NCBI RefSeq assembly: GCF_023100725.1 | Contig: NZ_CP095501.1 | Span: 1,922,001 to 1,986,000, forward strand | Direction: 5' to 3' | DNA from: Arthrobacter antioxidans | Lineage (GTDB): Bacteria > Actinomycetota > Actinomycetes > Actinomycetales > Micrococcaceae | DNA length: 64,000 bases | In this document: in pieces, positions 41,585 through 57,553 of the stretch | Numbering within the stretch: the stretch's first letter is position 1 | Layout: the number at the start of each line of letters is the position of its first letter | Program-made: the position numbers and the translations under genes | The notes under the pieces: model-generated | What the model saw: only the letters and a program-made list of their open reading frames with translations | Told to the model about the DNA's origin: nothing | Databases searched by the model: none

Positions 41585-41761
41585 TCAGCGCTTCCGGAAG
41601 GCGTCCCTCACCTTCTCGGCCGCCTGCCTCAGGTCCGCCTTGACCTGATCCCTTTTTCCCTCCGTCTCGAGTCGCTCGTTTCCTGTTGCCCTGCCCGTGG
41701 CTTCCTTGGCCCTGCCTGAAAGCTTCTTCGCTGCATTCTTGATCTTGTCGCCCAGACTCAT
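41585..41761 (-). CDS. CsbD family stress protein
   Basis: A 58-residue CsbD-like protein, MSLGDKIKNAAKKLSGRAKEATGRATGNERLETEGKRDQVKADLRQ, a largely disordered, Lys/Ala-rich family often induced under stress. The ATG at 41761 follows AAGGAGAA. It marks the left end of a stress-gene cluster that runs to about 57.6 kb. No DosR-like box is seen close upstream on the minus strand. Confidence 0.85.
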   Translation of the reverse strand: MSLGDKIKNAAKKLSGRAKEATGRATGNERLETEGKRDQVKADLRQAAEKVRDAFRKR

Positions 41762-42126
41762 CGAGTTCTCCTTCGGCGTGCAGGCCCCGCCGCCTATCGG
41801 CAGGCAGAGCCTTTCGCGGCGCAGGCCGGGGCTGGATGCTTGCCCGTTCCGTGACGATGAGTGGCCCCTGAACCTGCCGGTTCGCGGTCGCGCAGGAATG
41901 CGACGCGCAAATTGGTCCTGGACCCCTCGGGACGTCACCTGGTGCTTGCCGGCTGGTGCTGCCATGTGATCCTTTCACCGGCGATGCGGGACTCCTTCAC
42001 ATGTCCGCGCCACGAACTCCCGCACCAGACTGTGCTTGGGGCTCGCATTACGGCCTGGACGATCCGCGTTGTCCGATGAGATGCAGGTCACCCGGCAATT
42101 GTTGCTGGGAACCTCCGACCCCATCA

Positions 42127-42140
42127 GGGTCTTTGGTCCC
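42127..42140. promoter_or_regulatory. DosR-like box 1, GGGTCTTTGGTCCC
   Basis: GGGTCTTTGGTCCC with inverted flanks ATCA and TGAT (42123-42144 in all). It resembles the DosR consensus TTSGGGACTWWAGTCCCSAA and lies about 160 bases before the universal stress gene at 42301. Confidence 0.7.
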
Positions 42141-42210
42141 TGATTCAGGCGTGCATCCCACCGCCGGCGCGATCCTCCGGCCTTGTAGCATGGCCCCCCC
42201 CACTCCTCAT

Positions 42211-42224
42211 AGGACGAAAGGCCC
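42211..42224. promoter_or_regulatory. DosR-like box 2, AGGACGAAAGGCCC
   Basis: With flanks AT and TAT it forms the near-palindrome ATAGGACGAAAGGCCCTAT (42209-42227), 84 bases centre to centre from box 1 and about 75 bases before the ATG. Confidence 0.6.
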
Positions 42225-42300
42225 TATCGTCCATTGCGGCCGGTGGGCACGCTTCAGGCAGCAGGACCACCTGATCGCAGCAAGCCTGAGGAGACACTCC

Positions 42301-42795
42301 ATGAGCACAGCAGCCGCCCCGCGAATCGTCGTCGGCGTCGATGGTTCGCAGCAGTCCGTCGAGGCGTTGCGTTACGCCCAGCGGCTGGCCCCCGCCTTCG
42401 ACGCGACGATCCTGGCGGTCGCGGCATGGGACTACCCGGCCGAGTACCCCGGGTACGTTCCGCTCGGCACCAGTGAGTTCGCCGACGCCGCGAAGATCCA
42501 TCTGGAGCACGCCGTCACGAAGGCCTACGGAGGGAACGTCCCGAACGGCCTCGAGACCACGGTGGTCTTCGCCCATCCCGGCAAGGCGCTCGTTCAGGCC
42601 TCCCGCGATGCCGCCCTGCTCATCGTGGGCCGGAGAGGTCACGGAACATTCCGGGGGCTGCTCCTGGGGTCCGTGAGCGCCAGTTGCGTCTCGCACGCCC
42701 ACTGTCCCGTCCTCGTGATTCCTCACGTGGCTGAAGAACCGGCGTCGGAGAACAAGCCGGCAGCCGGCAAAGTGGCCGAAGACGCAGACGCTTGA
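42301..42795 (+). CDS. Universal stress protein (single UspA domain)
   Basis: A 164-residue UspA-fold protein with start RIVVGVDGSQQSVEALRYA and the ATP-binding loop GRRGHGTFRGLLLGSVSASC. The C-terminal tail is short and charged. Universal stress genes are core members of the mycobacterial DosR regulon, and two DosR-like boxes lie upstream. It has a GAGGAGA ribosome site. The lycopene cyclase gene follows 83 bases later and is probably cotranscribed. Confidence 0.92.
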   Translation: MSTAAAPRIVVGVDGSQQSVEALRYAQRLAPAFDATILAVAAWDYPAEYPGYVPLGTSEFADAAKIHLEHAVTKAYGGNVPNGLETTVVFAHPGKALVQASRDAALLIVGRRGHGTFRGLLLGSVSASCVSHAHCPVLVIPHVAEEPASENKPAAGKVAEDADA

Positions 42796-42878
42796 AGGAT
42801 GTGCCACCGCTCCCCCGGCGTCGCCGCTGCGTCCTGACGCACGCGTGGCCTGCCGGGTGAGCGCGGACACCGGCCCCC

Positions 42879-44015
42879 GTGAGTCGTGAACCGGCGGACT
42901 TCGACATCATCCTCGCCGGCGGTGGTCTCGCCGGACGGAGCCTCGCCTATTTCCTCAGCAGGCAACCGGGTCTGGATGACGCGCGGATCCTCCTCGTCGA
43001 CGACAGCCGCCACTACCAGCACCGTGCCATCGTCTACTGGTACGACGGCGTGCTGCCCCTGCACCTGACCCCGTCAGCGAGCTACACGACGCTCGCGGTC
43101 GATACAGCCACAGGATTGCGCAGGCTGTCACTCGATCGCCACACGCTGTCCCTGACCTCCTCACAGAGGATCTTCCGCTCCCTGGATCAGGTGATCGATG
43201 CCGATCCGCGCATCACGCGGCTCGACGCTCACGCCGCCCGGATCCATGCCAGAGGGGACCGGGTCGCGGTGACCCTCACCGACGGCCGATCCTTCACGGC
43301 CTCGCACTGTTGCGACAGCACCGCCCCTCCGTCCGGAGTGGCCCCTCCCCTGCTCATGACCGGCGAGATCAGACAGGTCCGGACCGTGCGCGACTCCTTC
43401 GACCCGGCGGTGGCCACCTTCATGGACTTCAGGTCGGGCGACGGCGAGCACCCTGCCCGCTTCCATTGCCTCCTGCCGGTGTCCGCACGCGAAGCCTTCG
43501 TGGAGACGACGAGAATCACGCGCGGCGATACACCAGCCATGGGTGGGCCCTTCGAAACGGCGGCCTCGGAGTATCTGCGCAGCACCTGCGGAGTGACGGA
43601 CTTCTCCACGCTGACCGTTCAACGGGGTGCGATCCCGCTCGGCCTGCATCGCCAGGCGTCGCGGGGACGGCACCTGTATGTGGGTACGGCCTCCGGGATC
43701 ATCAAGGCCACGACCGGGTACGGCTTCACCCGCATACTCCACCAGGCCGAGCGTGTCGCGTCGTCGTTCGCCGCGACAGGATCGCCACGCAGCCCCGAGC
43801 CGTCGCGCCGCTTCCACTTCTACGACAAGCCCGTCCTCGGGATGTGGCTGCACGACCCCGAAGCGGCAGTCCGCTTCATGAGGGCCGCATTCGCAGCGCT
43901 GGACGTCGATCTGATCCTCGACTTCCTCGACGAACGCACCACCCCGCTGCAGGAACGCGAGCTCCTCGGAGCCATGCCGGTCCGGATGCTCCTGCGCCCG
44001 CGCCTCTGGCTGTGA
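42879..44015 (+). CDS. Lycopene beta-cyclase family flavoprotein (CrtY/CrtL type)
   Basis: A 378-residue FAD-dependent cyclase. Seen: N-terminal dinucleotide fold DIILAGGGLAGRSLAYFLS, FMDFR, the substrate strand LLPVSAREAFVETTRI, QRGAIPLGLH, and GTASGIIKATTGYGFTRILH, in the order used by bacterial lycopene cyclases. They convert linear lycopene to cyclic carotenoids. No phytoene synthase, desaturase or prenyltransferase gene lies in the window, so the gene is an orphan. GTG start. Its place behind a stress gene with DosR-like boxes is unusual and may mean induction at low oxygen. Confidence 0.85.
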   Translation: MSREPADFDIILAGGGLAGRSLAYFLSRQPGLDDARILLVDDSRHYQHRAIVYWYDGVLPLHLTPSASYTTLAVDTATGLRRLSLDRHTLSLTSSQRIFRSLDQVIDADPRITRLDAHAARIHARGDRVAVTLTDGRSFTASHCCDSTAPPSGVAPPLLMTGEIRQVRTVRDSFDPAVATFMDFRSGDGEHPARFHCLLPVSAREAFVETTRITRGDTPAMGGPFETAASEYLRSTCGVTDFSTLTVQRGAIPLGLHRQASRGRHLYVGTASGIIKATTGYGFTRILHQAERVASSFAATGSPRSPEPSRRFHFYDKPVLGMWLHDPEAAVRFMRAAFAALDVDLILDFLDERTTPLQERELLGAMPVRMLLRPRLWL

Positions 44016-44244
44016 CTCCCGGACGCGTCCGGCCTCCTGTCGGATCGCGCAGTGCGCCTCGTGCTGTCCTCAACGACGCGGTGGTGGCCGCAATGGTGAC
44101 GAAAGTCCCTACAGGGCCGTCCCGCCTCGCAGGACACTGGGACGCAACCCTTTCGGGAGTGGTCGTCGTGCGACGCCGGCAGGAAGCACACGGGAAGCAT
44201 CCGCCGGTCGGCAACCACTTCACGAGCGAACAAAGGACAGATGA
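44016..44244. other. Intergenic region with a weak DosR-like site
   Basis: 229 bases after the cyclase. GTGACGAAAGTCCC (44096-44109) matches one arm of the DosR box well and the other poorly. A 51-codon open frame (44093-44248) overlaps it and the next start, but has no family features and is not called as a gene. Confidence 0.35.
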
Positions 44245-44463
44245 ATGAGCTCGACAGAGCGCCCGATCGCCCCACCAATGCCCGCAACACCCCCGATCCA
44301 CCTCGATCCCTCCACCGAAGACGACACGTTCAGGACCATCGGTCTCAGGCCCAGCGGATCCGACCTCAAACGCCTCATGGAGCGTCGGCGGGAAGCAGAG
44401 CGGAAGCTCGCCCTGCACATCCAGAAATATCGGGAAACACACCCGCTCCCCTCCAAGGAGTGA
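44245..44463 (+). CDS. Small charged protein of unknown function
   Basis: A 72-residue protein; the first 30 residues are Pro/Thr-rich and the rest is one predicted amphipathic helix (GSDLKRLMERRREAERKLALHIQKYRETHP). I do not recognise a family. AAAGGAC precedes overlapping ATG codons (44241 in another frame, 44245 here); the 44245 frame has the more protein-like composition. It precedes the membrane protein gene and may be cotranscribed with it. Confidence 0.6.
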   Translation: MSSTERPIAPPMPATPPIHLDPSTEDDTFRTIGLRPSGSDLKRLMERRREAERKLALHIQKYRETHPLPSKE

Positions 44464-44538
44464 CCCAGAAGCTCGCGCCCGTGCCGGTGTGAGGGCTGCT
44501 CCTACCTCATCCAGGCACCACCACGGAGGACGCCCGCC

Positions 44539-46080
44539 ATGAGTTCGAGTTCGTCGAGTACCACTCCCCCTCCCGCTCGGACGCCCATGCGGGCAGGTCC
44601 GCTGGTCATGGTCCTGGTCGGCGCCCTGCTCGTCTCGGTAGCAGGGGGCCTGGCGTTCGGCGGTCTGCTCATCAGCGCTCTCGCCGGGTTCCAGCGGGAT
44701 GGACAATTCCTGAACACCTCCACGGAACGGTTCGAGTACGACTCCTACGCACTCACCACCCAGCCGCAGGACATCCGGCTGGACACCGGGGAGGGCGCCC
44801 TCCCCGCGGGTATCGCAACGGTCCAACTGAAGGCCACAGGCGTACCGAGCACGAAGGCGGTCTTCGTCGGCGTGGCCAGACAGGCCGACGTCGACGCATA
44901 CCTGTCGTCCGTGCAGCACACAGAATTGATCGAGGTACGGACCGACCCCTTCCGCGCCGCATACCGTGACATCCCGGGTTCCTCCGTTCCGGCCTCGCCC
45001 GCCGAACAGACGTTCTGGACGGCATCGGCCTCCGGCACCGGGACGCAGGTGATCTCCGTGGACGTGCGCTCCGGGAGCTGGGCGGTCGTGGTGATGAACG
45101 CCGACGGCAGCCAGACCGGCGCCGTGGACCTCCAGGCGGGTGTCCGGTCGGGCCTCTTCGGGCCCGTCGGCATGACGCTGCTCCTGGTGGCGGGCCTCCT
45201 GGTGCTGGTCGGCGTCCCCCTCCTGCTGATCGGGGCGAACGCGCTCGGCAAAGGGCTCGTCCCGTCCCCGGCAGCCGGCGGGAACCGGCGTGGAGGGCTG
45301 ACGGAGGACGCCCACCACACCGCGTCGGGCGATCCGATACGTGACTTCCTGCCCTACCCGGCGCGGCTCACGGGCTATCTGCAACCCAGACTCTCGCGGT
45401 GGCTGTGGCTGGTGAAGTGGTTCCTCGTCATCCCGCACCTCGTGGTGCTGTGGCTGCTCTGGACCGCGTGCTTCGTGAGCACGGTGGCCGCCGGCGTCGT
45501 CATCCTGTTCACCGGGCGCTACCCGGCCGGCCTGTTCGCCTTCACCGTGGGCGTCTTCCGCTGGACGTGGCGGGTGCAGTTCTACGCCTCCGCGCTCGGG
45601 ACGGACCTGTATCCGCCCTTCACCCTCGCCCGCGTCCCGGACTATCCCGCCGATTTCGAGGTCCCCTACCCGTCCCGGCTCCACCGCGGCCTCGTCCTCG
45701 TGAAGTGGTGGCTGCTGGCCCTCCCGCACCTCCTGATCGTCGCCGCCCTGACGGGTGCCGCGACCACGACCGTCGTCGTCGCCCCCGGGTCCGGCGACCT
45801 GATCAGGACCACCGCACCGTCTCTGCTGGGCCTGCTGGTGATCATTGCCGGGGTCGCCCTCCTGTTCACGGCGCGCTACCCCGCGCCGCTCTTCGGCCTG
45901 GTGATGGGGATCCACCGCTGGACGTACCGCGTGGCAGCCTACGTGTTCCTGCTGCGTGACGAATATCCACCGTTCCGCCTGGACCAGGGGGCGGAGGAGA
46001 CGGAGGCCCGGCCACGCGAAACCGGTGGGTGGGAAGCCGTGGGGATGAAGGCGCCTCCACCCCGTCCGCCCGGCTCCTGA
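44539..46080 (+). CDS. DUF4389 membrane protein
   Basis: A 513-residue membrane protein. An N-terminal membrane segment is followed by an extracellular stretch of about 150 residues, a second membrane segment (MTLLLVAGLLVLVGVPLLLIGANAL), and two copies of the DUF4389 module: RLSRWLWLVKWFLVIPHLVVLWLLWTA with VILFTGRYPAGLFAFTVGVFRWTWRVQFYA, and RGLVLVKWWLLALPHLLIVAALT with LLFTARYPAPLFGLVMGIHRWTYRVAAY. The function of the family is unknown. The GGAGG ribosome site is good. No DosR-like box is immediately upstream. Confidence 0.85.
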   Translation: MSSSSSSTTPPPARTPMRAGPLVMVLVGALLVSVAGGLAFGGLLISALAGFQRDGQFLNTSTERFEYDSYALTTQPQDIRLDTGEGALPAGIATVQLKATGVPSTKAVFVGVARQADVDAYLSSVQHTELIEVRTDPFRAAYRDIPGSSVPASPAEQTFWTASASGTGTQVISVDVRSGSWAVVVMNADGSQTGAVDLQAGVRSGLFGPVGMTLLLVAGLLVLVGVPLLLIGANALGKGLVPSPAAGGNRRGGLTEDAHHTASGDPIRDFLPYPARLTGYLQPRLSRWLWLVKWFLVIPHLVVLWLLWTACFVSTVAAGVVILFTGRYPAGLFAFTVGVFRWTWRVQFYASALGTDLYPPFTLARVPDYPADFEVPYPSRLHRGLVLVKWWLLALPHLLIVAALTGAATTTVVVAPGSGDLIRTTAPSLLGLLVIIAGVALLFTARYPAPLFGLVMGIHRWTYRVAAYVFLLRDEYPPFRLDQGAEETEARPRETGGWEAVGMKAPPPRPPGS

Positions 46081-46132
46081 TCGTCCTCGACATCTCCCAC
46101 CCGACGAATCACGACGGAAAGGCCCATCGACC

Positions 46133-47032
46133 ATGACACCCACCCACCCCCACGAGATCCTGGATCTCGCCCTCCTGCAGCGTGGCACGGAGGGCACCGC
46201 AGTGCTGGGCCGCAGTACTCCTGTGAGTGTGGAGATCCGCGCGACCCGCCGCGTGCGGGTGACCTCGGTCCAGTTCACCCTCGTGCACTCGCTGGAGCTC
46301 ACGCAGATGCGGGGCAATCAGTTCGGTGGGACCTACCATGCCGCAGAGCGCAGCTCGAAGGACATCGGGAGCACGCTGGTCCGCACCGGCACCACCCTGC
46401 GTGAGGGCGAGTCGTGTTTCGAGGTGAGCCAGCTGATGGTGCCCGCCGACGCGATCCCCACTCTTCACGGAAAGCTTGCGCTGTCCGGCTGGGCCGTGCG
46501 CGTCCGGGTGTCCTCCGACGGCAATCCGGACGTCGTCCGCTCCCAGCCGCTGGTCGTGCAGTCCGACGGATCCACGGCCGACGGCGAACCCGACACCCAC
46601 CCGACGGACGGACGCCACCCCGGAGCGGACCTGCACGTGGTGGAGCTGTCCACGCGCTCCGTGCATCCAGGGGTGGAGCTGTCCGGTGTCGTCACGGTCG
46701 GCGAAACCAAAGCACGCGCCCTGGACATCAGCATCGTCATGCAGGAGGAAGTGATGTTCTGGGCCGGCCAGCGTCCCCAGGAGGACCGTCACCCCGGGAA
46801 TTTCCTCATCGAGGAGACGGTGATCGACCAGGTCCGTCTCCCGGCCCATGCGGCCAGGGGATCGATGGTCCCCTTCACCCTCACGGCCGGCACCGTTCCC
46901 GCTCCGACGGTCACCTCACCCGTCCTACGGGTTCGCTGGTTCCTGCGGGCTGCACTCGAGGTACCGTTCCGGCGCGACCCTGAAGTGACCGTGCCCCTGG
47001 CCGCGGGCACCAGGATCCATTCCCGGGCCTGA
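46133..47032 (+). CDS. Conserved protein, possibly arrestin/SpoOM-like fold
   Basis: A 299-residue cytoplasmic protein without signal peptide. The alternation of short strands in two halves (RVRVTSVQFTLVHSLELTQMRG..., then ADLHVVELSTRSVHPGVELSGVVTVGETKARALDISIVMQEEV) suggests a two-lobed beta-sandwich of the arrestin/SpoOM kind; this is fold inference only. A GGAAAGG site precedes the ATG by ten bases. It follows the DUF4389 gene by 52 bases and converges with the minus-strand stress protein. Confidence 0.6.
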   Translation: MTPTHPHEILDLALLQRGTEGTAVLGRSTPVSVEIRATRRVRVTSVQFTLVHSLELTQMRGNQFGGTYHAAERSSKDIGSTLVRTGTTLREGESCFEVSQLMVPADAIPTLHGKLALSGWAVRVRVSSDGNPDVVRSQPLVVQSDGSTADGEPDTHPTDGRHPGADLHVVELSTRSVHPGVELSGVVTVGETKARALDISIVMQEEVMFWAGQRPQEDRHPGNFLIEETVIDQVRLPAHAARGSMVPFTLTAGTVPAPTVTSPVLRVRWFLRAALEVPFRRDPEVTVPLAAGTRIHSRA

Positions 47033-47033
47033 T

Positions 47034-48391: not shown

Positions 48392-48464
48392 GATGGGGGT
48401 CTGCTCCTTCGCGACAGGTGAACGTGCGCCCCGTCATCGTCTCCAGCCCCTCATGTGCTGGGTA

Positions 48465-48478
48465 GGGTCGAAAGGCCC
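48465..48478. promoter_or_regulatory. DosR-like box 3, GGGTCGAAAGGCCC
   Basis: Between the stress operon (minus, start 48391) and the regulator gene (plus, start 48598), so it could control both, including the regulator itself. Confidence 0.6.
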
Positions 48479-48597
48479 GCCCGATGTTGGGCCGTTGTGC
48501 CCTGACGACGCGCACGGTACCGGATGATGATGGTGCTTGAACACGAGGCACCCCGGCCCGGTAGCGCCGGGCGCGTCGACGACGTCGGAGGTTGGAG

Positions 48598-49287
48598 ATG
48601 GACTACCCCGTGACCGGAGTGCATCCCGAGGATGCCACGGTGTTCATCCTCGACGACCATGAGCTGGTCCGGCGTGGGTTGCGCGAACTGTTGGAGAGCG
48701 AGGGTTTCTCCATCATCGGAGAATCCGGATCGGCCGAGGAGGCGGCCCGGAGGATCCCTGCCCTGTCGCCGGACATCTCGATCCTCGACGCGAGGCTGCC
48801 CGACGGCACGGGCATCGAAGTGTGCCGCGACGTGCGCTCGGTCGACCCCTCCCTGGCGTGCGTGATCCTGACGAGCTATGACGACGACCAGGCGTTGCGC
48901 GGTGCGGTGCTCGCGGGTGCCTCCGGGTACATCCTGAAGGAGATCCTCGGATCCGACCTCGTCGAGAAGGTCCGCCGGGCGGCGTCCGGTCAGTCGTTGT
49001 TCGCGGCCGGCGTGACGGAACGGATCACCTCCGGGCTCCAGGACGCCCCGGTCGAGGACCCGCGGCTGGAAGGCCTGACCAGTCAGGAGAAGAAGGTCCT
49101 GGCACTCATCGGGGCCGGGCTGACCAATCGGGAGATCGGCGCGGAGCTGTTCCTCGCGGAGAAGACCGTGAAGAACTACGTGTCGTCCCTGCTGTCGAAG
49201 TTGGGATTCCAGCGCCGCACCCAGGCAGCGGTGTTCATCTCCCGCCCGTCGGGTCCACCGTCTCCGTCGCATTCAGAGGGATCCTGA
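48598..49287 (+). CDS. DosR/DevR-like response regulator (NarL family)
   Basis: A 229-residue two-component regulator. The receiver domain has the acidic pocket DDHELVRRGL, the phosphoacceptor Asp64 in ISILDARLPDG, LTSY and the Lys in YILKEI. The LuxR-type HTH is LTSQEKKVLALIGAGLTNREIGAELFLAEKTVKNYVSSLLSKLGFQRRTQAAVF. The AEKTVKNYVS recognition helix is the same as in M. tuberculosis DosR, where Lys179, Lys182 and Asn183 contact DNA. GGAGGTTGGAG precedes the ATG. It converges on the kinase gene, overlapping it by 53 bases. Strong assignment to the family; the symbol is left empty because orthology is not proven. Confidence 0.9.
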   Translation: MDYPVTGVHPEDATVFILDDHELVRRGLRELLESEGFSIIGESGSAEEAARRIPALSPDISILDARLPDGTGIEVCRDVRSVDPSLACVILTSYDDDQALRGAVLAGASGYILKEILGSDLVEKVRRAASGQSLFAAGVTERITSGLQDAPVEDPRLEGLTSQEKKVLALIGAGLTNREIGAELFLAEKTVKNYVSSLLSKLGFQRRTQAAVFISRPSGPPSPSHSEGS

Positions 49288-50977
49288 GGCGGATCTCCGT
49301 TCCCTCCCCGGGTTCACTGAGGATGGAGATCGTGCCGTCGCAGAGTTCGGCACGGCGCTTCATGTTGGCGATGCCGCTGGTGCGGGTGGGATTCTCGAAC
49401 CCGCGGCCGTCGTCGGTGATCTTCAGCTCGAGGTGGTCGTTGATCGCTCGCAGCGTCACCGTGATGGTCTGCGCGTCGGCATGGCGCAGCGCGTTCGACA
49501 GCCCTTCGAGCAATACGGCCCTGACATGGTCGGCGCGCTCATCGTCCAGCGCCGCGTCGAGCGGGCCGGACAGCTGGAGGACCGGAGCAAGATCATGGCC
49601 GTCGAAGGCATCCGCGACGAGGGAGAAGATCGTCGAGGTGAACGTCGGAGTGACCTGCGGAACCGTGCGCAGCGAGTAGATGGTGTCACGCAGTTCCCGG
49701 ATGGTCTCGTCCAGTTCCGTCGTCACCGCGGAGATGCGGGTCAGAGCCTCTCCGTCGGGCGTGTACTTGCGCAGGCTCTGGATGCTCAGTCCGGCCGCGA
49801 AGAGCCGCTGGATGACCAGGTCGTGCAGGTCCCGTGCAATACGGTCACGGTCGCCGAAGACGGCCTCCTGTTCCCGCTGGCGGTGGACGCGCAGCAGTTC
49901 GAGGGCCAGGGACACATGGGATACGAAGGTGGTCATCATCTCGTGGTCGACGTCGGAGAACGGCGACCCACCCGATGGTCGGCCGACGACGAGGAAGCGG
50001 CGGTCGCCGTCGCCCGGGAGCTTGCTGCACAGGGCCGTCCCGATCATGCCTTCCGGAGCGCCGGGCAGCACCTGCGCGAATTCGTCAGCATCCAGGACGA
50101 TGGGTGACAGCGTGGTCGGAAGCCTGTCGAGCAGCGTCGGATCCAGGTTCGACTGGCCGAGAAGGGCCTCGACCTCGACACCGTCCACTGCCTCGCAGCC
50201 CACCCCCCGGTGGCTACCGAAATCCCTGAGGACGGCCGCGAGGATACTCTGCGACGCGTTCAGCGCGTGGGTGGCGAGGATGTCCAGGTCGTGCCGTGCT
50301 TCGTCGTGCTGGCCGAGCAGTTCCCTCACGGCATTCAACCCGCCCTCGAGCCACCGGGTCCGCCGATTCGCTTCATCGAAGAGCCGCGAGTTCTCGATCG
50401 CGACCCCCGCGGCGGAGGCCAGGGCCACGACGAGCTGTTCGTCGTCGACGGAGAAGTCCTCACCTCCGTTCTTGTCGGTCAGGTACAGGTTCCCGAAGAC
50501 GCGGTCGTGGATGCGGATCGGGACACCGAGGAAGGACTTCATCGGCGGGTGGTCCGCCGGGTAGCCATAGGCGAGGGGATGTTCGCGCAGATCGGAGAGG
50601 CGGAGCGAATGCGGCACGGAGATCAGCAGGCCGAGGATCCCGTGTCCCGTCGGGAACTGGCCGATCCGCCGGATCTCGTCGTCCTCCAGGCCCACCGTCG
50701 TGAAGTGACCGAGTGTACGGTCCGGGCCGATGACTCCGAGGGCCCCGTAGCGGGCATCCACCAGTCGGCAGGCCGCCGAGATGACGCGTTCCAGAACCGT
50801 GTCGAGCCCGAGGTCGTCCGCTATGGCTGCGAAGGCGGCGAGGAGGTCTTCCATCCCGGCGAGCGCCGTCGTCCGCGAGGGCGCTCCGTTGGGCAGTTCT
50901 TCAGAATAGGTGACCACGTGCCGCACTCCGTACTGTCGACGTGATGTCCCGCCCCCAGGAGAATCACGATCCGTCAT
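49235..50977 (-). CDS. DosS/DosT-like GAF sensor histidine kinase
   Basis: A 580-residue HisKA_3-type kinase. GAF-A spans about residues 58-200 and contains DHPPM (His143), aligned by hand with the heme-ligating His149 of DosS; Tyr165 (FGNLYLTDK) aligns with distal-side Tyr171. Where DosS has Glu87, this protein has Gly81 (ARYGALG), as DosT has Gly85, which suggests an oxygen sensor of DosT type. GAF-B follows (about 230-365). The phosphoacceptor is His385 in IARDLHDLVIQRLF; the ATPase N-box is EGLSNALRHA and the G-box is ITDDGRGF. No membrane segments. The gene shares a box with the PNPOx gene. Confidence 0.92.
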   Translation of the reverse strand: MTDRDSPGGGTSRRQYGVRHVVTYSEELPNGAPSRTTALAGMEDLLAAFAAIADDLGLDTVLERVISAACRLVDARYGALGVIGPDRTLGHFTTVGLEDDEIRRIGQFPTGHGILGLLISVPHSLRLSDLREHPLAYGYPADHPPMKSFLGVPIRIHDRVFGNLYLTDKNGGEDFSVDDEQLVVALASAAGVAIENSRLFDEANRRTRWLEGGLNAVRELLGQHDEARHDLDILATHALNASQSILAAVLRDFGSHRGVGCEAVDGVEVEALLGQSNLDPTLLDRLPTTLSPIVLDADEFAQVLPGAPEGMIGTALCSKLPGDGDRRFLVVGRPSGGSPFSDVDHEMMTTFVSHVSLALELLRVHRQREQEAVFGDRDRIARDLHDLVIQRLFAAGLSIQSLRKYTPDGEALTRISAVTTELDETIRELRDTIYSLRTVPQVTPTFTSTIFSLVADAFDGHDLAPVLQLSGPLDAALDDERADHVRAVLLEGLSNALRHADAQTITVTLRAINDHLELKITDDGRGFENPTRTSGIANMKRRAELCDGTISILSEPGEGTEIRLRIPLNATETVDPTGGR

Positions 50978-51010
50978 CCATGACGAGACCTGACCTGCTG
51001 TCCGGCAAAA

Positions 51011-51024
51011 GGGTCAGAGTGCCC
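51011..51024. promoter_or_regulatory. DosR-like box 4, GGGTCAGAGTGCCC
   Basis: In the 82-base gap between the kinase gene (minus, start 50977) and the PNPOx gene (plus, start 51060). It ends 24 bases before the TAGTGT -10 box of the latter, close to the -35 position, where DosR acts in M. tuberculosis. Confidence 0.6.
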
Positions 51025-51047
51025 TATCCGGCCCGTAGGTCACTTCG

Positions 51048-51053
51048 TAGTGT
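51048..51053 (+). promoter_or_regulatory. -10 box TAGTGT, leaderless promoter of the PNPOx gene
   Basis: TAGTGT followed by six bases and ATG 51060, downstream of DosR-like box 4. Confidence 0.5.
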
Positions 51054-51059
51054 CGATCT

Positions 51060-51509: not shown

Positions 51510-52362
51510 GGACCAGGGTGGGGCAGGGTGGCTCCAGGAGCAGCGTATGCGTGACCGAGCCGAGGGACATCGCTGATCGCGCACCGCTCCCGTGGCGGCC
51601 GATCACCAGCAGATCCGAGCCGGTGCCATAGAGCGCGAGCGCCTCGACGGGCGTGTGCAGGTCATCGACGACCCAGCTCACGAGGAGGTCCGGGTAGCGT
51701 GTGCGCACGGCCAGGAGCATCGGCGCCGCACCGACCGCCATACGTTGCGGTGACGAACCCAGTGCGGTCACCACCGTCAGGCCCATTCCTGCCGAGTGGG
51801 CCTCCTCGGCCGCTCTCATGAGAGCGGCCCGGGACACCTCCGAGCCGTCCACACCCACCACCACTCCCCCTCCGGCCTGGCCGGAGTCCGTCCGATAGCC
51901 ATAGGCCGGCGGCACGACGGCGACGGGCGTCGCGGAGTTCAGCGCCACCTGCAGGGCCACGGAGCCCTTGTACTCCCCGCTGGTGGGATCCCTCCGGTCC
52001 GCGCCCACGACGATCATGGGTGCGGCGGCCGAGAGGCCCAGGAGCGCCTCGACGACGTCGCCGCAGTGGAGATACGTACTGACCCGCAGACCCGGGTACC
52101 TGTGGGCGACGCGCGACGCTTCGCGGCTGACCATCACTCGCCCGGCGATCACCTCGTCGCCGTAGAGGCGGCCCGGTGGCATCAGGGACGGGTCGGTGAT
52201 GGCGTGCAGGACCGTCAGCGGGGCGTCGAGGGCCGCAGCACGTGCGGCCGCCCATTCCACCGCAGGTCGGTCCGCCGCGGAATCGCGCATCGCGACGAGC
52301 ATCGGTTCGGAGCGCTGGACCGGTGGTTTCGTTGCTGTCGCCTCTGGAAGGACCGTCGTCAT
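51439..52362 (-). CDS. Universal stress protein with two UspA-like domains
   Basis: A 307-residue tandem UspA protein. Domain 1 (about 18-150) starts EPMLVAMRDSAADRPAVEWA and ends with the variant loop VGADRRDPTSGEYKGSVALQV, so ATP binding there is doubtful; domain 2 has GVVVGVDGSEVSRAALMRA and the complete loop GRHGSGARSAMSLGSVTHTL. It is the fourth universal stress gene of the cluster. ATG 52362 is preceded by GAGGAATGCACC. The palindromic DosR-like box 5 lies 170 bases upstream and is shared with the divergent PNPOx gene. Confidence 0.9.
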   Translation of the reverse strand: MTTVLPEATATKPPVQRSEPMLVAMRDSAADRPAVEWAAARAAALDAPLTVLHAITDPSLMPPGRLYGDEVIAGRVMVSREASRVAHRYPGLRVSTYLHCGDVVEALLGLSAAAPMIVVGADRRDPTSGEYKGSVALQVALNSATPVAVVPPAYGYRTDSGQAGGGVVVGVDGSEVSRAALMRAAEEAHSAGMGLTVVTALGSSPQRMAVGAAPMLLAVRTRYPDLLVSWVVDDLHTPVEALALYGTGSDLLVIGRHGSGARSAMSLGSVTHTLLLEPPCPTLVLTHREPEPPDGSPTRTAERMNVR

Positions 52363-52534
52363 GGTGCATTCCTCACATGCTTGTTCTGATCAGGAACGAT
52401 GACGGCTCGCCCCCACGCGCATCCTTCCCGGCGGCGGCGACGGCCGTCGGACCGACCCGGAGGGCGTCCGTGAGTCTCAGGCGTCGCGGGGAGGGGCACC
52501 CTCCCACGATCACAGATCCGGGGAATGCTGATCA

Positions 52535-52548
52535 GGGCCTTTGGGCCC
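52535..52548. promoter_or_regulatory. DosR-like box 5, GGGCCTTTGGGCCC
   Basis: The best palindrome of the set: flanks ATCA and TGAT (52531-52552) are the same as in box 1. It lies between the stress gene (minus) and the second PNPOx gene (plus, start 52659). Confidence 0.75.
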
Positions 52549-52658
52549 TGATACGGAGGCCGAAGTATTTGTAGCGTCGATAAAAGGCACCCTTCCGTCC
52601 CGGAATCACCGGGTACGACGCCGCGATCGAACCATCACTACGGACGAAGGACGACACC

Positions 52659-53108
52659 GTGTCAACAACGCCACGCCAGGACAGCTACTGGGACATGCCC
52701 GGCGCCCTTCATGCGTCGGAAGCCCTCACCCCGTCGCAGTGCTGGGCGCTGGCTACGACGCAGTCGCTCGGGCGTCTCGGCTTCTTCCACGAGGGGTTCC
52801 TGAACATCTTCCCCGTCAACTACTTCGTGCTCGATGAGCACCTGTATTTCCGGACCAGGGCCGACGGCACCATTGCCAGCAGCTATCTCGAGCACGCAGG
52901 ATTCCAGGTCGACCTCACCGACCGGAACACCCAGAGCGGGTGGACCGTCCTGGCCAACGGACCAGCCACCCGCGTGGAGGACCCGGCCCTCCTGACCACC
53001 CTGTGGGGGAAAGTGTCGGAGGAGCCGTGGGCGCCCGGTCTGCGCGACCTCTTCTACGAGATGGCGCCGATCCGGCTGCGTGGTCGTCGCCTCTCGACCG
53101 CACGCTAG
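52659..53108 (+). CDS. PNPOx-like flavin split-barrel protein 2
   Basis: A 149-residue paralogue of the protein at 51060: CWALATTQSLGRLGFFHEGFLNIFPVNYFVLDEHLYFRTRADG, then FQVDLTDRNTQSGWTVLANGPATRVED. Start GTG 52659, with AAGGACGAC just upstream. The cofactor is unknown. A short zinc-ribbon gene follows after 11 bases. Confidence 0.86.
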   Translation: MSTTPRQDSYWDMPGALHASEALTPSQCWALATTQSLGRLGFFHEGFLNIFPVNYFVLDEHLYFRTRADGTIASSYLEHAGFQVDLTDRNTQSGWTVLANGPATRVEDPALLTTLWGKVSEEPWAPGLRDLFYEMAPIRLRGRRLSTAR

Positions 53109-53119
53109 CCCTGATTGCC

Positions 53120-53443
53120 ATGTCGACGATCCGGCTCGGAACCAAGGGGCCAGCTGCGGCCCATACCTCGACGACGGCGGACGCGGAAGGACACACCCTG
53201 GACACGAGGGCAGTCCGTGAACGGGCGCTGCATGGCGAACGTCCTCGTGGACTGGCCCCGGTCTGCCTGACCTGCGGCTCGGACGACGCCCTCGTCTATT
53301 CCACCTACTCCGAACAGGTGGTCCTGCCCAACGGCCGGACCCGACATGCCCGGGCGAGATACTGCTGCGCCCGCTGCGGGCGCAGCCGTGATCACGAGGT
53401 ACCGGCCGGCTGGCGCCCGCCGGGCTGGTTCTGGTGCACCTGA
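53120..53443 (+). CDS. Small zinc-ribbon-like protein
   Basis: A 107-residue protein with two CxxC pairs, Cys49/Cys52 (CLTC) and Cys83/Cys86 (CARC; Cys82 also present), that can form a zinc ribbon; the N-terminus looks disordered. The ends are rich in Trp and Pro (PAGWRPPGWFWCT). I do not recognise a family. It follows the PNPOx gene and is followed by strong hairpins, so it is likely the last gene of that transcript. Confidence 0.55.
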   Translation: MSTIRLGTKGPAAAHTSTTADAEGHTLDTRAVRERALHGERPRGLAPVCLTCGSDDALVYSTYSEQVVLPNGRTRHARARYCCARCGRSRDHEVPAGWRPPGWFWCT

Positions 53444-53470
53444 CGGGACACGTGCAACCGGCCCCGCCTC

Positions 53471-53509
53471 GGTGCACCCCGCGCTCGCCGTTGAGCCCCG
53501 GGGTGCACC
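53471..53509. terminator. Eleven-base-pair hairpin between convergent genes
   Basis: GGTGCACCCCG (53471-53481) pairs perfectly with CGGGGTGCACC (53499-53509) around a 17-base loop. A second hairpin, CCTGCACC-TCAC-GGTGCAGG, follows at 53520-53539. They lie between the zinc-ribbon gene (+) and the STAS-like gene (-) and probably end both transcripts. Confidence 0.6.
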
Positions 53510-53527
53510 TGTTCACTGCCCTGCACC

Positions 53528-53938
53528 TCACGGTGCAGGAGGAATGACCCCCAGGGGGAAGGGCGCCGGTGCCGTGCCCTGCGCAGTCAGACGCGCGGTG
53601 ATGGACTCGGGGTGCAGGTCGGCCCGCACCGAGTCCCACGCCTGGGCTTCGCTCAGGTCGAGGACGACGTTCGTTCCCGGTGACAGGGTGGCTGCCCGTC
53701 TCACCACGAGGTCGAGCGCGTGCAGATTGACCGCCGACACGCAGCCGTGGACGAGGATCTGCACGATGTGGGCCTCGGCGTCGGCGCTGACGAGGATCTT
53801 CAGCTTCCGGTTGGAGGCCGACGGGTGCATCGCCATGGCGCGCCGCCGCATCGTCTCGTCCGATTCCGCACCGAGCGCGGATGTCCCGGAAGCCATCGCT
53901 CCCCGGCGGTAGGCGGTCCTCGCCGATCCCTGGGTCAC
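53528..53938 (-). CDS. STAS-like small protein
   Basis: A protein of about 136 residues. The core LKILVSADAEAHIVQILVHGCVSAVNLHALDLVVRRAATLSPGTNVVLDLSEAQAWDSV matches the strand-helix pattern of STAS domains (anti-anti-sigma fold), but the conserved phosphorylated Ser after DLS is not clear, so a regulatory role is only inferred. GTG 53938 or ATG 53896 could be the start. It follows the next gene on the minus strand by 26 bases. Confidence 0.5.
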   Translation of the reverse strand: MTQGSARTAYRRGAMASGTSALGAESDETMRRRAMAMHPSASNRKLKILVSADAEAHIVQILVHGCVSAVNLHALDLVVRRAATLSPGTNVVLDLSEAQAWDSVRADLHPESITARLTAQGTAPAPFPLGVIPPAP

Positions 53939-53964
53939 GCCGGCGGACGTGATCGGACGCCTTC

Positions 53965-54246
53965 TCACCGGTCCAGCATTTCTGCGTGGTCGTCCCACCG
54001 CAGGCGTTCGCGCCCATCGGTGGTGAACCTGCCCAGTTCCTGCGCACGACGGCGTGCCTTCAGGAACACGAGCTCTTCCCCTGAGAACCAGTACTCCCCG
54101 TGGGCGTCCGCATGCAGGCTCTCCCCGATGGTTGCTTCCACCCGGTTGACCAGGGTGCGCGGAAGGACTACGCACCCCGGATTCTCAAGAACCCATTGCT
54201 GAACGCCCGGATCGATCCTGGTCCAGATTGAACTGATGTTGGTCAC
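53965..54246 (-). CDS. Small conserved protein of unknown function
   Basis: A 93-residue basic protein, TNISSIWTRIDPGVQQWVLENPGCVVLPRTLVNRVEATIGESLHADAHGEYWFSGEELVFLKARRRAQELG. I recognise no domain. GTG 54246 has a GAGAGG ribosome site; ATG 54291 is also possible. The first gene after DosR-like box 6 on the minus strand, and probably cotranscribed with the STAS-like gene. Confidence 0.55.
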   Translation of the reverse strand: MTNISSIWTRIDPGVQQWVLENPGCVVLPRTLVNRVEATIGESLHADAHGEYWFSGEELVFLKARRRAQELGRFTTDGRERLRWDDHAEMLDR

Positions 54247-54315
54247 TGTGCGAACCTCTCGGATCGGTGTCTCGCCTTGCACGAACATCACACGCGAGAC
54301 CTCAACCGACGACTA

Positions 54316-54329
54316 GGGCCTTAAGTCCC
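54316..54329. promoter_or_regulatory. DosR-like box 6, GGGCCTTAAGTCCC
   Basis: The TTAAGTCCC half equals the canonical DosR half-site (WWAGTCCC). It lies between the minus-strand gene at 54246/54291 and the BON gene at 54427. Confidence 0.65.
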
Positions 54330-54426
54330 ATCCGACGTCGTCCACCGCCCGCACCGTGGGTTACGTAGGCAGGAGAGAGGACCTTCGACCCTGCAGACAT
54401 CACCATGCCTGGCGCACAGTGGACGC

Positions 54427-54696
54427 ATGACGATGTCACTCGACAACCATGCCCTCGGGGGTGGCAGAAGGCGCGCAGCAGATGATCACGCGTCACTCGA
54501 GGACCTTCTGCGCCAGGCGGTGCGCCGCGCAGCCGACTGCGCGAGCCTCGACATCACCGTGACCGAGGGCATCGTGATGCTCTCCGGGGTGGTGCTACGG
54601 CGCGAGGACAGGTCGCGCGCCGGTTTCGCCTGCTGGTGTGACCCGACCGTCCGCGCCGTCTACAACAACCTGACCGTCGCCTCGAGCCCTGCGTGA
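54427..54696 (+). CDS. BON domain protein
   Basis: An 89-residue protein with a single BON-like domain (SLEDLLRQAVRRAADCASLDITVTEGIVMLSGVVLRREDRSRAGFACWCDPTVRAVYNNLTV). BON domains bind membranes or lipids and occur in stress proteins. No signal peptide is evident. The gene is about 100 bases downstream of DosR-like box 6. Confidence 0.75.
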   Translation: MTMSLDNHALGGGRRRAADDHASLEDLLRQAVRRAADCASLDITVTEGIVMLSGVVLRREDRSRAGFACWCDPTVRAVYNNLTVASSPA

Positions 54697-54732
54697 GCAC
54701 CTCGGGCGATGCCCTGACCTGTCAGCCGATCA

Positions 54733-54746
54733 GGACCTAAGGCCCC
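54733..54746. promoter_or_regulatory. DosR-like box 7, GGACCTAAGGCCCC
   Basis: AGGACCTAAGGCCCCT has inverted arms and lies about 125 bases before the F420-dependent reductase gene. Confidence 0.5.
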
Positions 54747-54813
54747 TGCACGCCTTCCGTAACGCGTCCTAGGCTGACGCTCATGCTGCAGCGCAGGATC
54801 CTCGCCGCGCAAC

Positions 54814-54860
54814 CGGGTGGCCTGTCGGAAAGGCGCTCCCGGGTGGCCTGTCGGAAAGGC
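54814..54860 (+). repeat. Direct repeat upstream of the NADP-F420 oxidoreductase gene
   Basis: A 21-base unit (CGGGTGGCCTGTCGG then AAAGGC) occurs at 54814-54834 and 54840-54860, period 26 bases. The second copy ends eight bases before the ATG at 54869; its GGAAAGG could serve as ribosome site, so the duplication copies the ribosome site. Confidence 0.85.
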
Positions 54861-54868
54861 AGAAAGAC

Positions 54869-55510
54869 ATGAGCACAGTGACGATCGTCGGAAGCGGCAA
54901 AATGGCCCGGGGTATCGCCCTCCGCATGCTGCATGCCCGATGCCAGGTCAGGATCCTCGGGAGGAACGGGGAGCAGACGCGCGCCCTGGTGGAAGAGCTC
55001 GGACCCGGCGCCCAGGGCGGCTACCCGGGCGAACCCATCGACGGCCACGTCGTTGTCCTCGCCATCCCCTACGCCGACATCAGGGAGCTCGTCCTCGAGT
55101 ACGGGGCGGGCCTCGATGGGAAGATCGTAGTGGATATCAGCAACCCGGTCGACGTCGCCGGCTTCGATCGGCTGCTCACGCCGGCCGGCACGTCCTCGGC
55201 GGAGCAGACCGCGGAACTCCTGGGAGACCGGGCCGATGTGGTGAAGGCCTTCAACACCGTGTTCGCCGGCACACTCCAGGAGGGCAAGGTGGCCGGCGAA
55301 CCGCTCGATGTCTTCCTGGCGGGCGACTCCGAGGATGCCAAGGCCGTGGTCAGCAGACTCGTGGCGGGTTCGGGTCTGCGCCCCGTCGACGTGGGGCCGT
55401 TGCGCCGTTCACGGGAACTCGAGGCGATGATGCTCCTGATCATGGGGCTGCAGGTCGGCGATGCCCACCCGCACTTCAACTGGGACACCGCGCTGAAGAT
55501 CCTTCCGTGA
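54869..55510 (+). CDS. NADPH-dependent F420 reductase-like protein
   Basis: A 213-residue Rossmann-fold protein of the F420-dependent NADP oxidoreductase family: TVTIVGSGKMARGIALRML (nucleotide loop GSGKMA), VVVLAIPYADIRELVLEYG, VVDISNPVD and AFNTVFAGTL. Enzymes of this family move hydride between NADPH and coenzyme F420; use of F420 here is inferred. It precedes the P-type ATPase by 42 bases and is likely its operon partner. Confidence 0.85.
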   Translation: MSTVTIVGSGKMARGIALRMLHARCQVRILGRNGEQTRALVEELGPGAQGGYPGEPIDGHVVVLAIPYADIRELVLEYGAGLDGKIVVDISNPVDVAGFDRLLTPAGTSSAEQTAELLGDRADVVKAFNTVFAGTLQEGKVAGEPLDVFLAGDSEDAKAVVSRLVAGSGLRPVDVGPLRRSRELEAMMLLIMGLQVGDAHPHFNWDTALKILP

Positions 55511-55552
55511 CCGCCCTCGCAGGCACACAGCCCTCCGGGCGCGACAGCCGCA

Positions 55553-57553
55553 GTGCCCGCTGACACCCCCGCCCGGTCAGGCGGCCCACCGGGTCCCGAC
55601 CGGGCGGAGACTCTCGCCCGGCCACCTCTCCCCGGAGGACAACGGGACACGCCGTCGGGGGCTCCCGGGGTACAGGGCCGGACCTCGCTGCCGCGACTCC
55701 CCTGGCTGGTCGTCCTGACGTGCGTCGTGATCGTGGTGACGATCCTCCTCGATGCGGCGGGGGCCGGTGCCGCCGCGCAGATCACTGCGACGTCCTACTC
55801 CCTGGCCGTCGCAGCCGTGCAGGCCTTCGGCATGCTCCGGGACATCCGGAAGGGCCACTGGGGCGTGGACCTCCTGGCGCTGATGGCCATCATCGCCACG
55901 GCCGTCACCGGCGAGTACTACGCGAGCATCGTCGTCGTGCTGATGATCGCCAGCGGGCAGGCCCTGGACGACTTCGCGTCCGCACGCGCCCAGACCCAAC
56001 TCCGGGCACTGCTCGAGCGGGCACCTCGCTCGGCTCACCGGATCACGGAGGACGGACGGGAGTCGGTCGCGGGCGAGAGTGGGCCGATCGAGGACGTACC
56101 GATCGACGACCTCCAGGTGGGCGACCTCCTGCTGGTGAGACCCTCGGAGGTCGTCCCCGCGGACGGGACCCTGACAACGGACTCCGCGACACTCGACGAG
56201 TCCATGCTCACGGGTGAGAGCCTGCCCGTCGACAACCGGCGTGGTGCACACATCCTCAGCGGATCCCTGAACGGCGCGGACGCCCTGATTCTGCGGGCGA
56301 CGGCGACTCCGGCGCAGTCGCAGTACAGCCAGATCGTCGCGCTCGTCGCCGAGGCGTCGGCCAGCCGGTCACCGACGGTCAGGCTCGCCGACCGGTTCGC
56401 CGTTCCCTTCACCGCCTTCGCGTTGGCCCTCGCCGCGCTGTCGTGGTTCCTGAGCTCCGATCCGACGCGGGCTGCCGCAGTCCTGGTCGCTGCCACGCCC
56501 TGCCCCCTGCTGATCGCTGCTCCGGTGGCGTTCCTCGGGGGAATCAGTAGGGCGGCCCGCGCCGGCATCATCATCAGGAGCACCCAGGCGTTGGAGCAGC
56601 TCGCGCGGGCCCGGAGCGTGGCCTTCGACAAGACCGGCACCCTGACCTCCGGCACACCGCTGGTGGGCGGGATCGTCCTCGCCCCGACGGCGGGGCCCCT
56701 TACCGAGGACGAGGTCCTCGCCTTGGCGGCCTCCGCGGAGCAGTATTCCACCCACGTCCTCGCCGCGGCCATCACGGCCGAGGCCGCGCGCCGCGGACTG
56801 GCGCTCCGTCCGGCGAACAGGGCACAGGAGTTCGCGACCGACGGCGTCCGCGCGGAGGTCGCGGGGACCATGATCGCCGTCGGCAAACGCCGTTTCGTGG
56901 AAGGCCTCGTCGGGCGCGTCCCGGACCCTTCCCTGTCACCGGGGGAGACCGCCGTCTACGTGGGGGTCGGCGAGCGCTTCGCCGGGGTCATCCTGCTGCG
57001 GGACACCCTGCGCAGCGCGGCGCCCTCCACCGTCAGCTCGCTCGTCGCCCTCGGCGTGCGCGAGGTGCTCATGCTCACCGGGGACGTCGAAGCCACCGCG
57101 CGCCACATTGCGCGGGAGGCGGGCGTGACCACGATCCACGCCGATTGCCTGCCCGGGGACAAGGTGGAGATCGTCCGGACCCTCCCCGAGCGTCCCGTCA
57201 TCATGGTGGGTGACGGCGTCAACGATGCCCCGGTGCTCGCTGCCGCCGACGTCGGCATCGCCATGGGGGCGAGGGGATCGACGGCGGCCAGCGAATCGGC
57301 GGAGGTGATCATCACCGTCGACGACCTCGCGAAGGTCACCGAGGCCGTGCTCATCGGCAGGAGGACCCTGCGCATCGCACTGCAGAGCATCGGGATCGGC
57401 ATCGCCCTGAGCCTCGTGCTGATGATGGCCGCCGCCCTCGGACTCGTGCCCCCGCTGGCCGGCGCATTCGGCCAGGAGGGCATCGATCTGCTGACGATCC
57501 TCTACGCGCTGCGTGCGGCACGTGCCCCCCGGTCCGGGGCCCCCCGCACGTAG
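55553..57553 (+). CDS. P1B-type heavy-metal-translocating ATPase
   Basis: A 666-residue P-type ATPase without an N-terminal metal-binding domain. Seen: two to three N-terminal membrane helices, TGES phosphatase loop (LTGESLPVD), TPCPLL (Cys317) in the sixth membrane segment instead of the CPC of copper ATPases, DKTGTLTSG (Asp359), and MVGDGVNDAPVLAAADVGIAMG. The metal is unknown; the TPC motif argues against the copper type. An ATPase (CtpF) belongs to the M. tuberculosis DosR regulon, though it is of another class. GTG start. Confidence 0.9.
   Translation: MPADTPARSGGPPGPDRAETLARPPLPGGQRDTPSGAPGVQGRTSLPRLPWLVVLTCVVIVVTILLDAAGAGAAAQITATSYSLAVAAVQAFGMLRDIRKGHWGVDLLALMAIIATAVTGEYYASIVVVLMIASGQALDDFASARAQTQLRALLERAPRSAHRITEDGRESVAGESGPIEDVPIDDLQVGDLLLVRPSEVVPADGTLTTDSATLDESMLTGESLPVDNRRGAHILSGSLNGADALILRATATPAQSQYSQIVALVAEASASRSPTVRLADRFAVPFTAFALALAALSWFLSSDPTRAAAVLVAATPCPLLIAAPVAFLGGISRAARAGIIIRSTQALEQLARARSVAFDKTGTLTSGTPLVGGIVLAPTAGPLTEDEVLALAASAEQYSTHVLAAAITAEAARRGLALRPANRAQEFATDGVRAEVAGTMIAVGKRRFVEGLVGRVPDPSLSPGETAVYVGVGERFAGVILLRDTLRSAAPSTVSSLVALGVREVLMLTGDVEATARHIAREAGVTTIHADCLPGDKVEIVRTLPERPVIMVGDGVNDAPVLAAADVGIAMGARGSTAASESAEVIITVDDLAKVTEAVLIGRRTLRIALQSIGIGIALSLVLMMAAALGLVPPLAGAFGQEGIDLLTILYALRAARAPRSGAPRT

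What the first reader, a model, noticed from the sequence alone, without database searches (positions are those of the whole stretch)
41585..57553. A compact DosR/DevR-type dormancy regulon outside the mycobacteria
About 16 kb groups a DosR-like regulator, a DosS/DosT-like kinase, four universal stress genes, two PNPOx-like proteins, BON and STAS-like proteins, an F420-dependent NADP reductase homologue and a P-type ATPase. Most match classes found in the M. tuberculosis DosR regulon, where the genes are scattered; here they are in one block with their regulators. At least seven GGG-N8-CCC palindromes (42127, 42211, 48465, 51011, 52535, 54316, 54733) sit in the promoter gaps. The two best, at 42123 and 52531, share their flanks, and the regulator's recognition helix (AEKTVKNYVS) equals that of DosR.
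Basis: partly seen in the sequence, partly recalled or inferred. Interest (0 to 1): 0.85.

Follow-up and report, generated by a model that had tools for sequence, protein, structure and literature searches.

The report
Arthrobacter DosR-type stress regulon island
This stretch of an Arthrobacter-like bacterium's chromosome carries a close relative of the gas-sensing dormancy switch known from mycobacteria and Streptomyces, together with the stress genes it probably turns on; it is a well marked new example of a known kind, with one small uncharacterised protein family that travels with the switch.

Summary
The block is real and best read as a DosR/OsdR-type regulon island. The regulator's best solved relative is DevR (214.7 bits; helix AEKTVKNYVS identical); the kinase keeps DosS/DosT's haem His and distal Tyr. 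GGG-N8-CCC alone is not enriched (40, expected 68), but a matrix from published OsdR and DosR sites puts its top nine hits in 184 kb in gaps of this block (six) and of a second dosR locus 136 kb away (three). In 29 same-genus stretches a -10-like hexamer starts exactly 30.5 bp from the box centre in 60 of 226 box-orientations (6.8 expected; permuted matrices 111 of 4303, 115 expected), fitting the -35 overlap reported for DosR.

Corrections: not one block (second intact locus, frameshifted third dosR, orphan kinase, unlinked boxes); two of seven boxes are one-mismatch, one (51011) is weak, one strong box (44095) was missed. DosR systems outside mycobacteria with clustered targets are published (OsdR). 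New: a small protein (53965-54246) with an upstream box at 15 of 16 dosR-linked copies, in 19 of 38 genus genomes, all dosR-positive, in none of 12 dosR-negative. Hypoxia response and dormancy are inferred.

The parts
48598..49287 (+). DosR/DevR-type response regulator (dosR-A); alternative start TTG 48592
   Evidence: Pfam Response_reg + GerE; best PDB match DevR 3c3w, 214.7 bits, AEKTVKNYVS identical
49235..50977 (-). DosS/DosT-type histidine kinase, tail-to-tail with dosR-A (3' ends overlap 53 bp)
   Evidence: GAF, HisKA_3, HATPase; GAF matches DosT 2vzw 163.5 bits; His143 and Tyr165 at the haem-ligand and distal positions
42301..42795 (+). universal stress protein 1
   Evidence: Pfam Usp 95.1 bits
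47034..47900 (-). universal stress protein 2 (two domains)
   Evidence: Pfam Usp 148.9 bits
47897..48391 (-). universal stress protein 3, divergent from dosR-A
   Evidence: Pfam Usp 85.6 bits
51439..52362 (-). universal stress protein 4
   Evidence: Pfam Usp 95.8 bits
51060..51509 (+). PNPOx-like protein 1
   Evidence: Pfam Pyridox_ox_2 89.1 bits
52659..53108 (+). PNPOx-like protein 2
   Evidence: Pfam Pyridox_ox_2 56.9 bits
53965..54246 (-). small orphan protein (93 aa, GTG start inferred from relatives), called p83 here; the gene most consistently linked to a box
   Evidence: relatives with a named source are Arthrobacter/Micrococcaceae; upstream box at 15 of 16 dosR-linked copies; found only in dosR-positive genomes
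53528..53899 (-). small protein downstream of p83 (reader: STAS-like; no Pfam match); start uncertain
54427..54696 (+). BON-domain protein
   Evidence: Pfam BON 35 bits
54869..55510 (+). F420_oxidored-family protein, below the npdG cut-off
55553..57553 (+). heavy-metal P1B-type ATPase, perhaps in one transcript with the preceding gene (inference)
   Evidence: Pfam E1-E2_ATPase; TIGR01525
42879..44015 (+). lycopene-cyclase-like FAD protein (cargo; membership in the regulon uncertain)
   Evidence: Pfam Lycopene_cycl 99.4 bits; TIGR01790 below cut-off
44539..46080 (+). DUF4389 protein (cargo)
46133..47032 (+). arrestin-like protein, below Pfam's gathering score (cargo)
42126..42141 (.). DosR-type box with TCA/TGA flanks, upstream of USP1
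   Evidence: score 12.7; perfect extended box
42210..42225 (.). DosR-type box upstream of USP1
   Evidence: score 12.6; CACGCT at +30.5
44095..44110 (.).
   Evidence: score 15.5, rank 2 in 184 kb; GACACT at +30.5
48464..48479 (.). DosR-type box between USP3 and dosR-A
   Evidence: score 13.3; GACGAT at +30.5 toward USP3
51010..51025 (.). weak box-like palindrome between kinase and PNPOx1
   Evidence: score 2.2; TAGTGT at +30.5 and the ATG at the implied start site, read by eye
52534..52549 (.). DosR-type box with TCA/TGA flanks between USP4 and PNPOx2
   Evidence: score 14.9; -10-like hexamers at +30.5 both ways; perfect extended box
54315..54330 (.). DosR-type box between p83 (76 bp from its start) and the BON gene
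   Evidence: best of 184 kb, score 16.5
54731..54746 (.). DosR-type box upstream of the F420_oxidored/ATPase pair
   Evidence: score 11.0; TAGGCT at +31.5

Best explanation
The block is a DosR/OsdR-type two-component island. A kinase with a haem-type GAF domain senses a gas (low O2, or NO/CO) and phosphorylates the DosR-type regulator, which binds 16-bp palindromes centred about 42 bp upstream of the transcription start, overlapping the -35 position, and activates USP, PNPOx-like, p83 and other stress genes and itself. Shown here by sequence: domain make-up, conserved ligand and helix residues, box clustering, box to -10 spacing, conservation in the genus. Inferred: haem binding, gas sensing, phosphotransfer, DNA binding, activation, and any role in dormancy. 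The genome has a second locus of the same kind (1.830-1.840 Mb, with a flavohaemoglobin-like gene), so the two modules may share operators.
For: DevR is the best PDB relative, 99 bits above the next; the kinase GAF matches DosT/DosS; of 75 aligned kinase rows (window kinase in it twice) 69 keep the haem His and 66 the Tyr. The top nine hits of a matrix from published sites lie in gaps of loci A and B; nine sites of 12.5 or more against a Markov mean of 2.55, maximum 6 in 20 runs. 13 of 61 distinct strict-pattern sites of the genome fall in 28 kb (counted; the pattern was fitted to window boxes, and two of the 13 overlap). Spacing of 30.5 in 60 of 226 against 6.8, p 1.6e-38, absent in 30 permuted models. 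Box near 23 of 31 dosR genes against 9.2% of random 500-bp stretches, and upstream of 15 of 16 linked p83 genes against 6.5% of random 350-bp stretches.
Against: No expression or binding data. The generic palindrome is not enriched, and the strict pattern is rarer than its reversed control genome-wide (69 against 114): only position, flanks and spacing discriminate. With the OsdR-only matrix 52534 ranks third, but 42126, 54731 and 51010 are not in the top 45 of 184 kb; the mixed matrix was made after that look. Kinase and PNPOx1 starts rarely have a box (3 of 27, 1 of 20). 13 of 82 loci have no box of score 11 or more (counted). 12 of 38 genus genomes lack dosR. Loci share descent, so the spacing p-value overstates independence.
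Confidence: 0.85

Rival explanations
1. A DosR-family regulon by descent and operator, but tuned to another signal (redox, nitrate, general stationary-phase stress), so not a hypoxia or dormancy regulon.
For: OsdR of Streptomyces is reported to control stress and development (PMC5069765). Mtb hallmarks that I recall, such as nitroreductase or alpha-crystallin, are not among the 19 block proteins scanned with Pfam; the rest of the genome was not searched for them.
Against: Haem His and distal Tyr kept in both kinases; a globin/FAD/NAD protein (flavohaemoglobin-like) lies in locus B, which fits O2/NO.
Confidence: 0.3
2. The boxes are served mainly by the second regulator (dosR-B, 79% identical) and locus A is chiefly a target island; dosR-A is redundant or has drifted.
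For: Same operator type in both loci; the extended box is shared between loci A, B and 58607; B sits in a supported group that does not hold A.
Against: dosR-A keeps the exact DosR helix and has its own upstream box.
Confidence: 0.15
3. A chance cluster of stress genes with GC-rich palindromes of no regulatory meaning.
For: GGG-N8-CCC is not above expectation.
Against: External matrix ranking, fixed 30.5-bp spacing, genus conservation and permuted controls.
Confidence: 0.02

Closest known systems
OsdR/OsdK regulon of Streptomyces coelicolor (PMC5069765, parts 1-3 of 9 read)
   Same: DosR-type regulator and kinase, 16-bp palindrome AGGGCCGATCGGCCCT, targets clustered round the regulator, many USP genes, a PNPOx target
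   Different: osdR-osdK are an operon there; here regulator and kinase are convergent with overlapping 3' ends. No nitrate reductase among the block proteins; p83, lycopene-cyclase-like, DUF4389 and arrestin-like cargo; two loci
DosR-DosS/DosT (DevR) dormancy regulon of Mycobacterium tuberculosis
   Same: regulator helix identical, haem-GAF ligand residues kept, operator resembles TTSGGGACTWWAGTCCCSAA (PMC2275270, passages), proximal box overlaps -35 (PMC3029386, passages), USP genes
   Different: gene order convergent; ATPase of heavy-metal type IB; recalled hallmark genes such as HspX not among the block proteins; physiology untested

Membership tests
DosR/DevR response regulators | receiver plus LuxR-type DNA-binding domain with DevR as nearest solved relative | tested here: met
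DosR/DevR response regulators | phospho-acceptor Asp and recognition helix AEKTVKNYVS | tested here: met
   alignment (LDARLPDG against LDVRLPDG; helix identical); residue roles recalled
DosR/DevR response regulators | binds the DosR/OsdR palindrome | not testable with these tools
   sites are present by an external matrix; binding itself needs the bench
DosS/DosT haem sensor kinases | GAF-A domain with proximal haem His and distal Tyr, HisKA_3 and HATPase | tested here: met
   residue roles recalled
DosS/DosT haem sensor kinases | haem-dependent O2/NO/CO control of autokinase activity | not testable with these tools
   needs purified protein
DosR/OsdR-type regulon | operators at several promoters near the regulator, proximal one overlapping -35 | tested here: met
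   (predicted -10 elements, no mapped starts); -35 overlap in Mtb from PMC3029386 passages
DosR/OsdR-type regulon | regulator and kinase in one operon | tested here: not met
   convergent here and in 26 of 31 genus and own loci, 5 without a kinase found beside the regulator. The operon is a feature of the studied cases (OsdR; Mtb recalled), not shown to be defining; 10 of 80 wider relatives are tandem and close
Mtb dormancy regulon | induction by hypoxia/NO and need for survival without oxygen | not testable with these tools
   no expression data

The most novel reading that the evidence does not exclude
In Arthrobacter the DosR system has become a duplicated, partly decaying network (two tail-to-tail dosR/dosS modules, an orphan haem-GAF kinase, a frameshifted third dosR) that shares one operator set, and whose most constant output is a lineage-specific small protein, p83, a new dedicated DosR effector, possibly DNA-binding.
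Probability: 0.4. Interest if true: 0.55.

Novelty: new member of a known kind. Interest (0 to 1): 0.42.

Why it matters
It offers a soil genus in which DosR logic (operator, box spacing, haem kinase, USP targets) could be tested without a pathogen, including how two DosR modules share operators. The p83 family is a concrete unknown: it was found only beside dosR-positive genomes and nearly always has a box, so it is a strong candidate for an undescribed DosR output. The 30.5-bp box to -10 spacing gives a sharp rule for predicting DosR targets in other actinobacteria.

Tried and rejected
GGG-N8-CCC as evidence: rejected, below expectation in the window and not enriched in the genome. One search used a mistyped extended pattern (one G missing on each side) and is ignored; one search is the correct one.

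Off-island sites: of 61 distinct strict-pattern sites (counted) 13 are in loci A and B, 2 more in the 184 kb, 44 were looked at (36 fetched stretches, 8 loci already held) and 2 were not fetched; these 2 and L012/L013 carry the same letters at four places, which I take for ribosomal RNA (not tested). Few of the 44 have both a fair score and the spacing: 1421980 (flavodoxin), 3750073 (142-aa protein that looks coiled-coil by eye), 2291459 (PLDc_N/SHOCT), 405195 and 1785335; candidates only.

Literature searches: DosR with Arthrobacter 7 papers; DosR with Micrococcus luteus, dormancy and universal stress protein 4; OsdR 76, 20 listed, many about a space data archive, 9 papers. By listing only, none appears to be about an Arthrobacter DosR system.
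Full report
What is there. The window is G000:C1:1922001-1986000 of a 3.78 Mb chromosome. The nearest named relatives of the regulator among the 80 loci returned are Arthrobacter bussei (90% identity) and Arthrobacter sp. Br18 (79%), so I call the host Arthrobacter-like; the name is inference. The protein called STAS-like has no Pfam match.

Regulator and kinase. The regulator's best solved relative is DevR (3c3w, 214.7 bits; the next, VraR, 115.6), with AEKTVKNYVS identical. In its own genome two further relatives stand far above the rest: 79% (1834402-1835049) and one of 74-75% in two frames (1917797-1918439); the next is 38%. The kinase's GAF domain matches DosT (163.5 bits) and DosS. In 75 aligned kinase rows (the window kinase is in it twice; for each locus the kinase nearest the regulator) the haem His is kept in 69, the Tyr in 66, the HisKA His in 74; the roles of these residues are recalled.

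Boxes. A first matrix, from the OsdR sites of PMC5069765 Table 1 alone, ranks 1832610, 1835176 and window 52534 first to third in 184 kb, but does not have 42126, 54731 or 51010 in its top 45. I then mixed it equally with the Mtb consensus in PMC2275270 (passages). The nine best hits of the mixture all lie in gaps, by my own simple gene calls, of the window block (54315, 44095, 52534, 48464, 42126, 42210) or of the second dosR locus (1832610, 1835151, 1835176). At 12.5 or more the region has these 9 sites; 20 first-order Markov sequences gave a mean of 2.55 and at most 6. The weak one is 51010 (2.2). The flank-extended form TCAGGGNCNNNNGNCCCTGA has four perfect sites in the genome: before USP1 and between USP4 and PNPOx2 in the window, before the PNPOx gene of locus B, and before an unlinked p83 gene at 58.6 kb; none has one mismatch, 23 have two, and the reversed pattern has 20 at up to two.

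Promoter geometry. In Micrococcaceae and own loci a NANNNT hexamer peaks at 30.5 bp from the box centre (43 of 152 box-orientations, mean 5.2 per offset; without the own genome 33 of 118, mean 3.9; other families 46 of 322, mean 7.9). In 29 same-genus stretches it is 60 of 226 against 6.8, and 30 column-permuted matrices show nothing (111 of 4303, 115 expected). This puts the box centre near -42, over the -35 position, as reported for Mtb DevR (PMC3029386, passages). The loci share descent, so the p-value is not one of independent trials.

Conservation. Across 29 genus stretches and the two own loci a box of score 10 or more lies near the start of 23 of 31 dosR, 12 of 16 usp3, 13 of 19 usp2, 10 of 14 usp1, 9 of 14 pnp2, 10 of 14 stas, 5 of 15 usp4, but only 3 of 27 dosS and 1 of 20 pnp1 genes; random 500-bp stretches 9.2%. 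Wider afield the signal is thinner: 170 boxes of 11 or more in 82 loci against 99 for permuted matrices, 8 against 1.4 in the window block, and 13 of the 82 loci have none. Regulator and kinase are convergent in 26 of 31 genus and own loci, with no kinase found beside the regulator in 5; among 80 wider relatives 39 are convergent within about 100 bp, 10 tandem, 3 divergent, 20 further apart and 8 without a kinase found. OsdR/OsdK are described as an operon.

Copies. dosR occurs in 26 of 38 genus genomes; 22 have one match, G002 and G005 two, and the own genome and G004 three. Own B falls in a supported group (100/98) with eight rows of other genomes, and own A outside it, unresolved. The third copy is split between frames and has a box-like site upstream. 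The own genome also holds an orphan full-length kinase at 3441734 (56%) and a C-terminal kinase fragment at 3523408. Locus B has USP and PNPOx-like genes and a globin/FAD/NAD protein.

The p83 family. Two searches of 5.8 billion proteins gave 12 and 16 relatives, one shared; every one whose source names an organism is Arthrobacter or Micrococcaceae, the rest have no organism given. It is in 19 of 38 genus genomes, all 19 dosR-positive; none of the 12 dosR-negative genomes has it (1.9e-5 if genomes were independent, which they are not; four of the 38 miss the 90% completeness and 5% contamination bar). An upstream box of 10 or more stands 76-148 bp before 15 of 16 dosR-linked copies, against 6.5% of random 350-bp stretches; in G025 the box is inside the gene. 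Copies away from dosR in G002, G008, G027 and G033 have one too; two in G016 have none, and the own one at 58.8 kb has 8.1 besides the extended box. The fold is undetermined.

Judgement. It works like, and on most tested features is a member of, the DosR/OsdR kind; the operon order differs, and the step from there to hypoxic dormancy is untested. It is ordinary in kind, since OsdR showed the same outside mycobacteria, but well supported, with a clear unknown (p83) and an unusual duplicated arrangement.

Noticed in passing
G000:C1:1917797-1918445 (L107), about 4 kb left of the window: A third dosR-like copy split between two reading frames, with a box-like site at 1917668 and, by eye, a resolvase-like gene 3 kb upstream; tblastn with nine island proteins found no trace of kinase, USP or PNPOx in 1910001-1922000.
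   Followed up: partly
G000:C1:1830070-1839023 (L103): Second dosR/dosS locus with PNPOx-like and USP genes, a flavohaemoglobin-like gene and a p83 gene, and its own boxes.
   Followed up: yes
G000:C1:3441734-3443437 (L215, L217): Orphan DosS/DosT-like kinase keeping His and Tyr, but with a stretch of about 40 residues before the His that, by eye, looks shifted in frame against its relatives.
   Followed up: partly
window 42879-44015: Lycopene-cyclase-like FAD protein inside the island; no match in the 29 same-genus stretches or in locus B. A possible link between carotenoids and this regulon.
   Followed up: no
G000:C1:1421980 (L117): High-scoring box (16.8) with a -10-like hexamer at 30.5 upstream of a flavodoxin gene, an off-island candidate target.
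   Followed up: partly
loci outside Micrococcaceae: Secondary peak of the -10-like hexamer at 52.5 bp (about two helical turns further), which may mark a distal box class.
   Followed up: no
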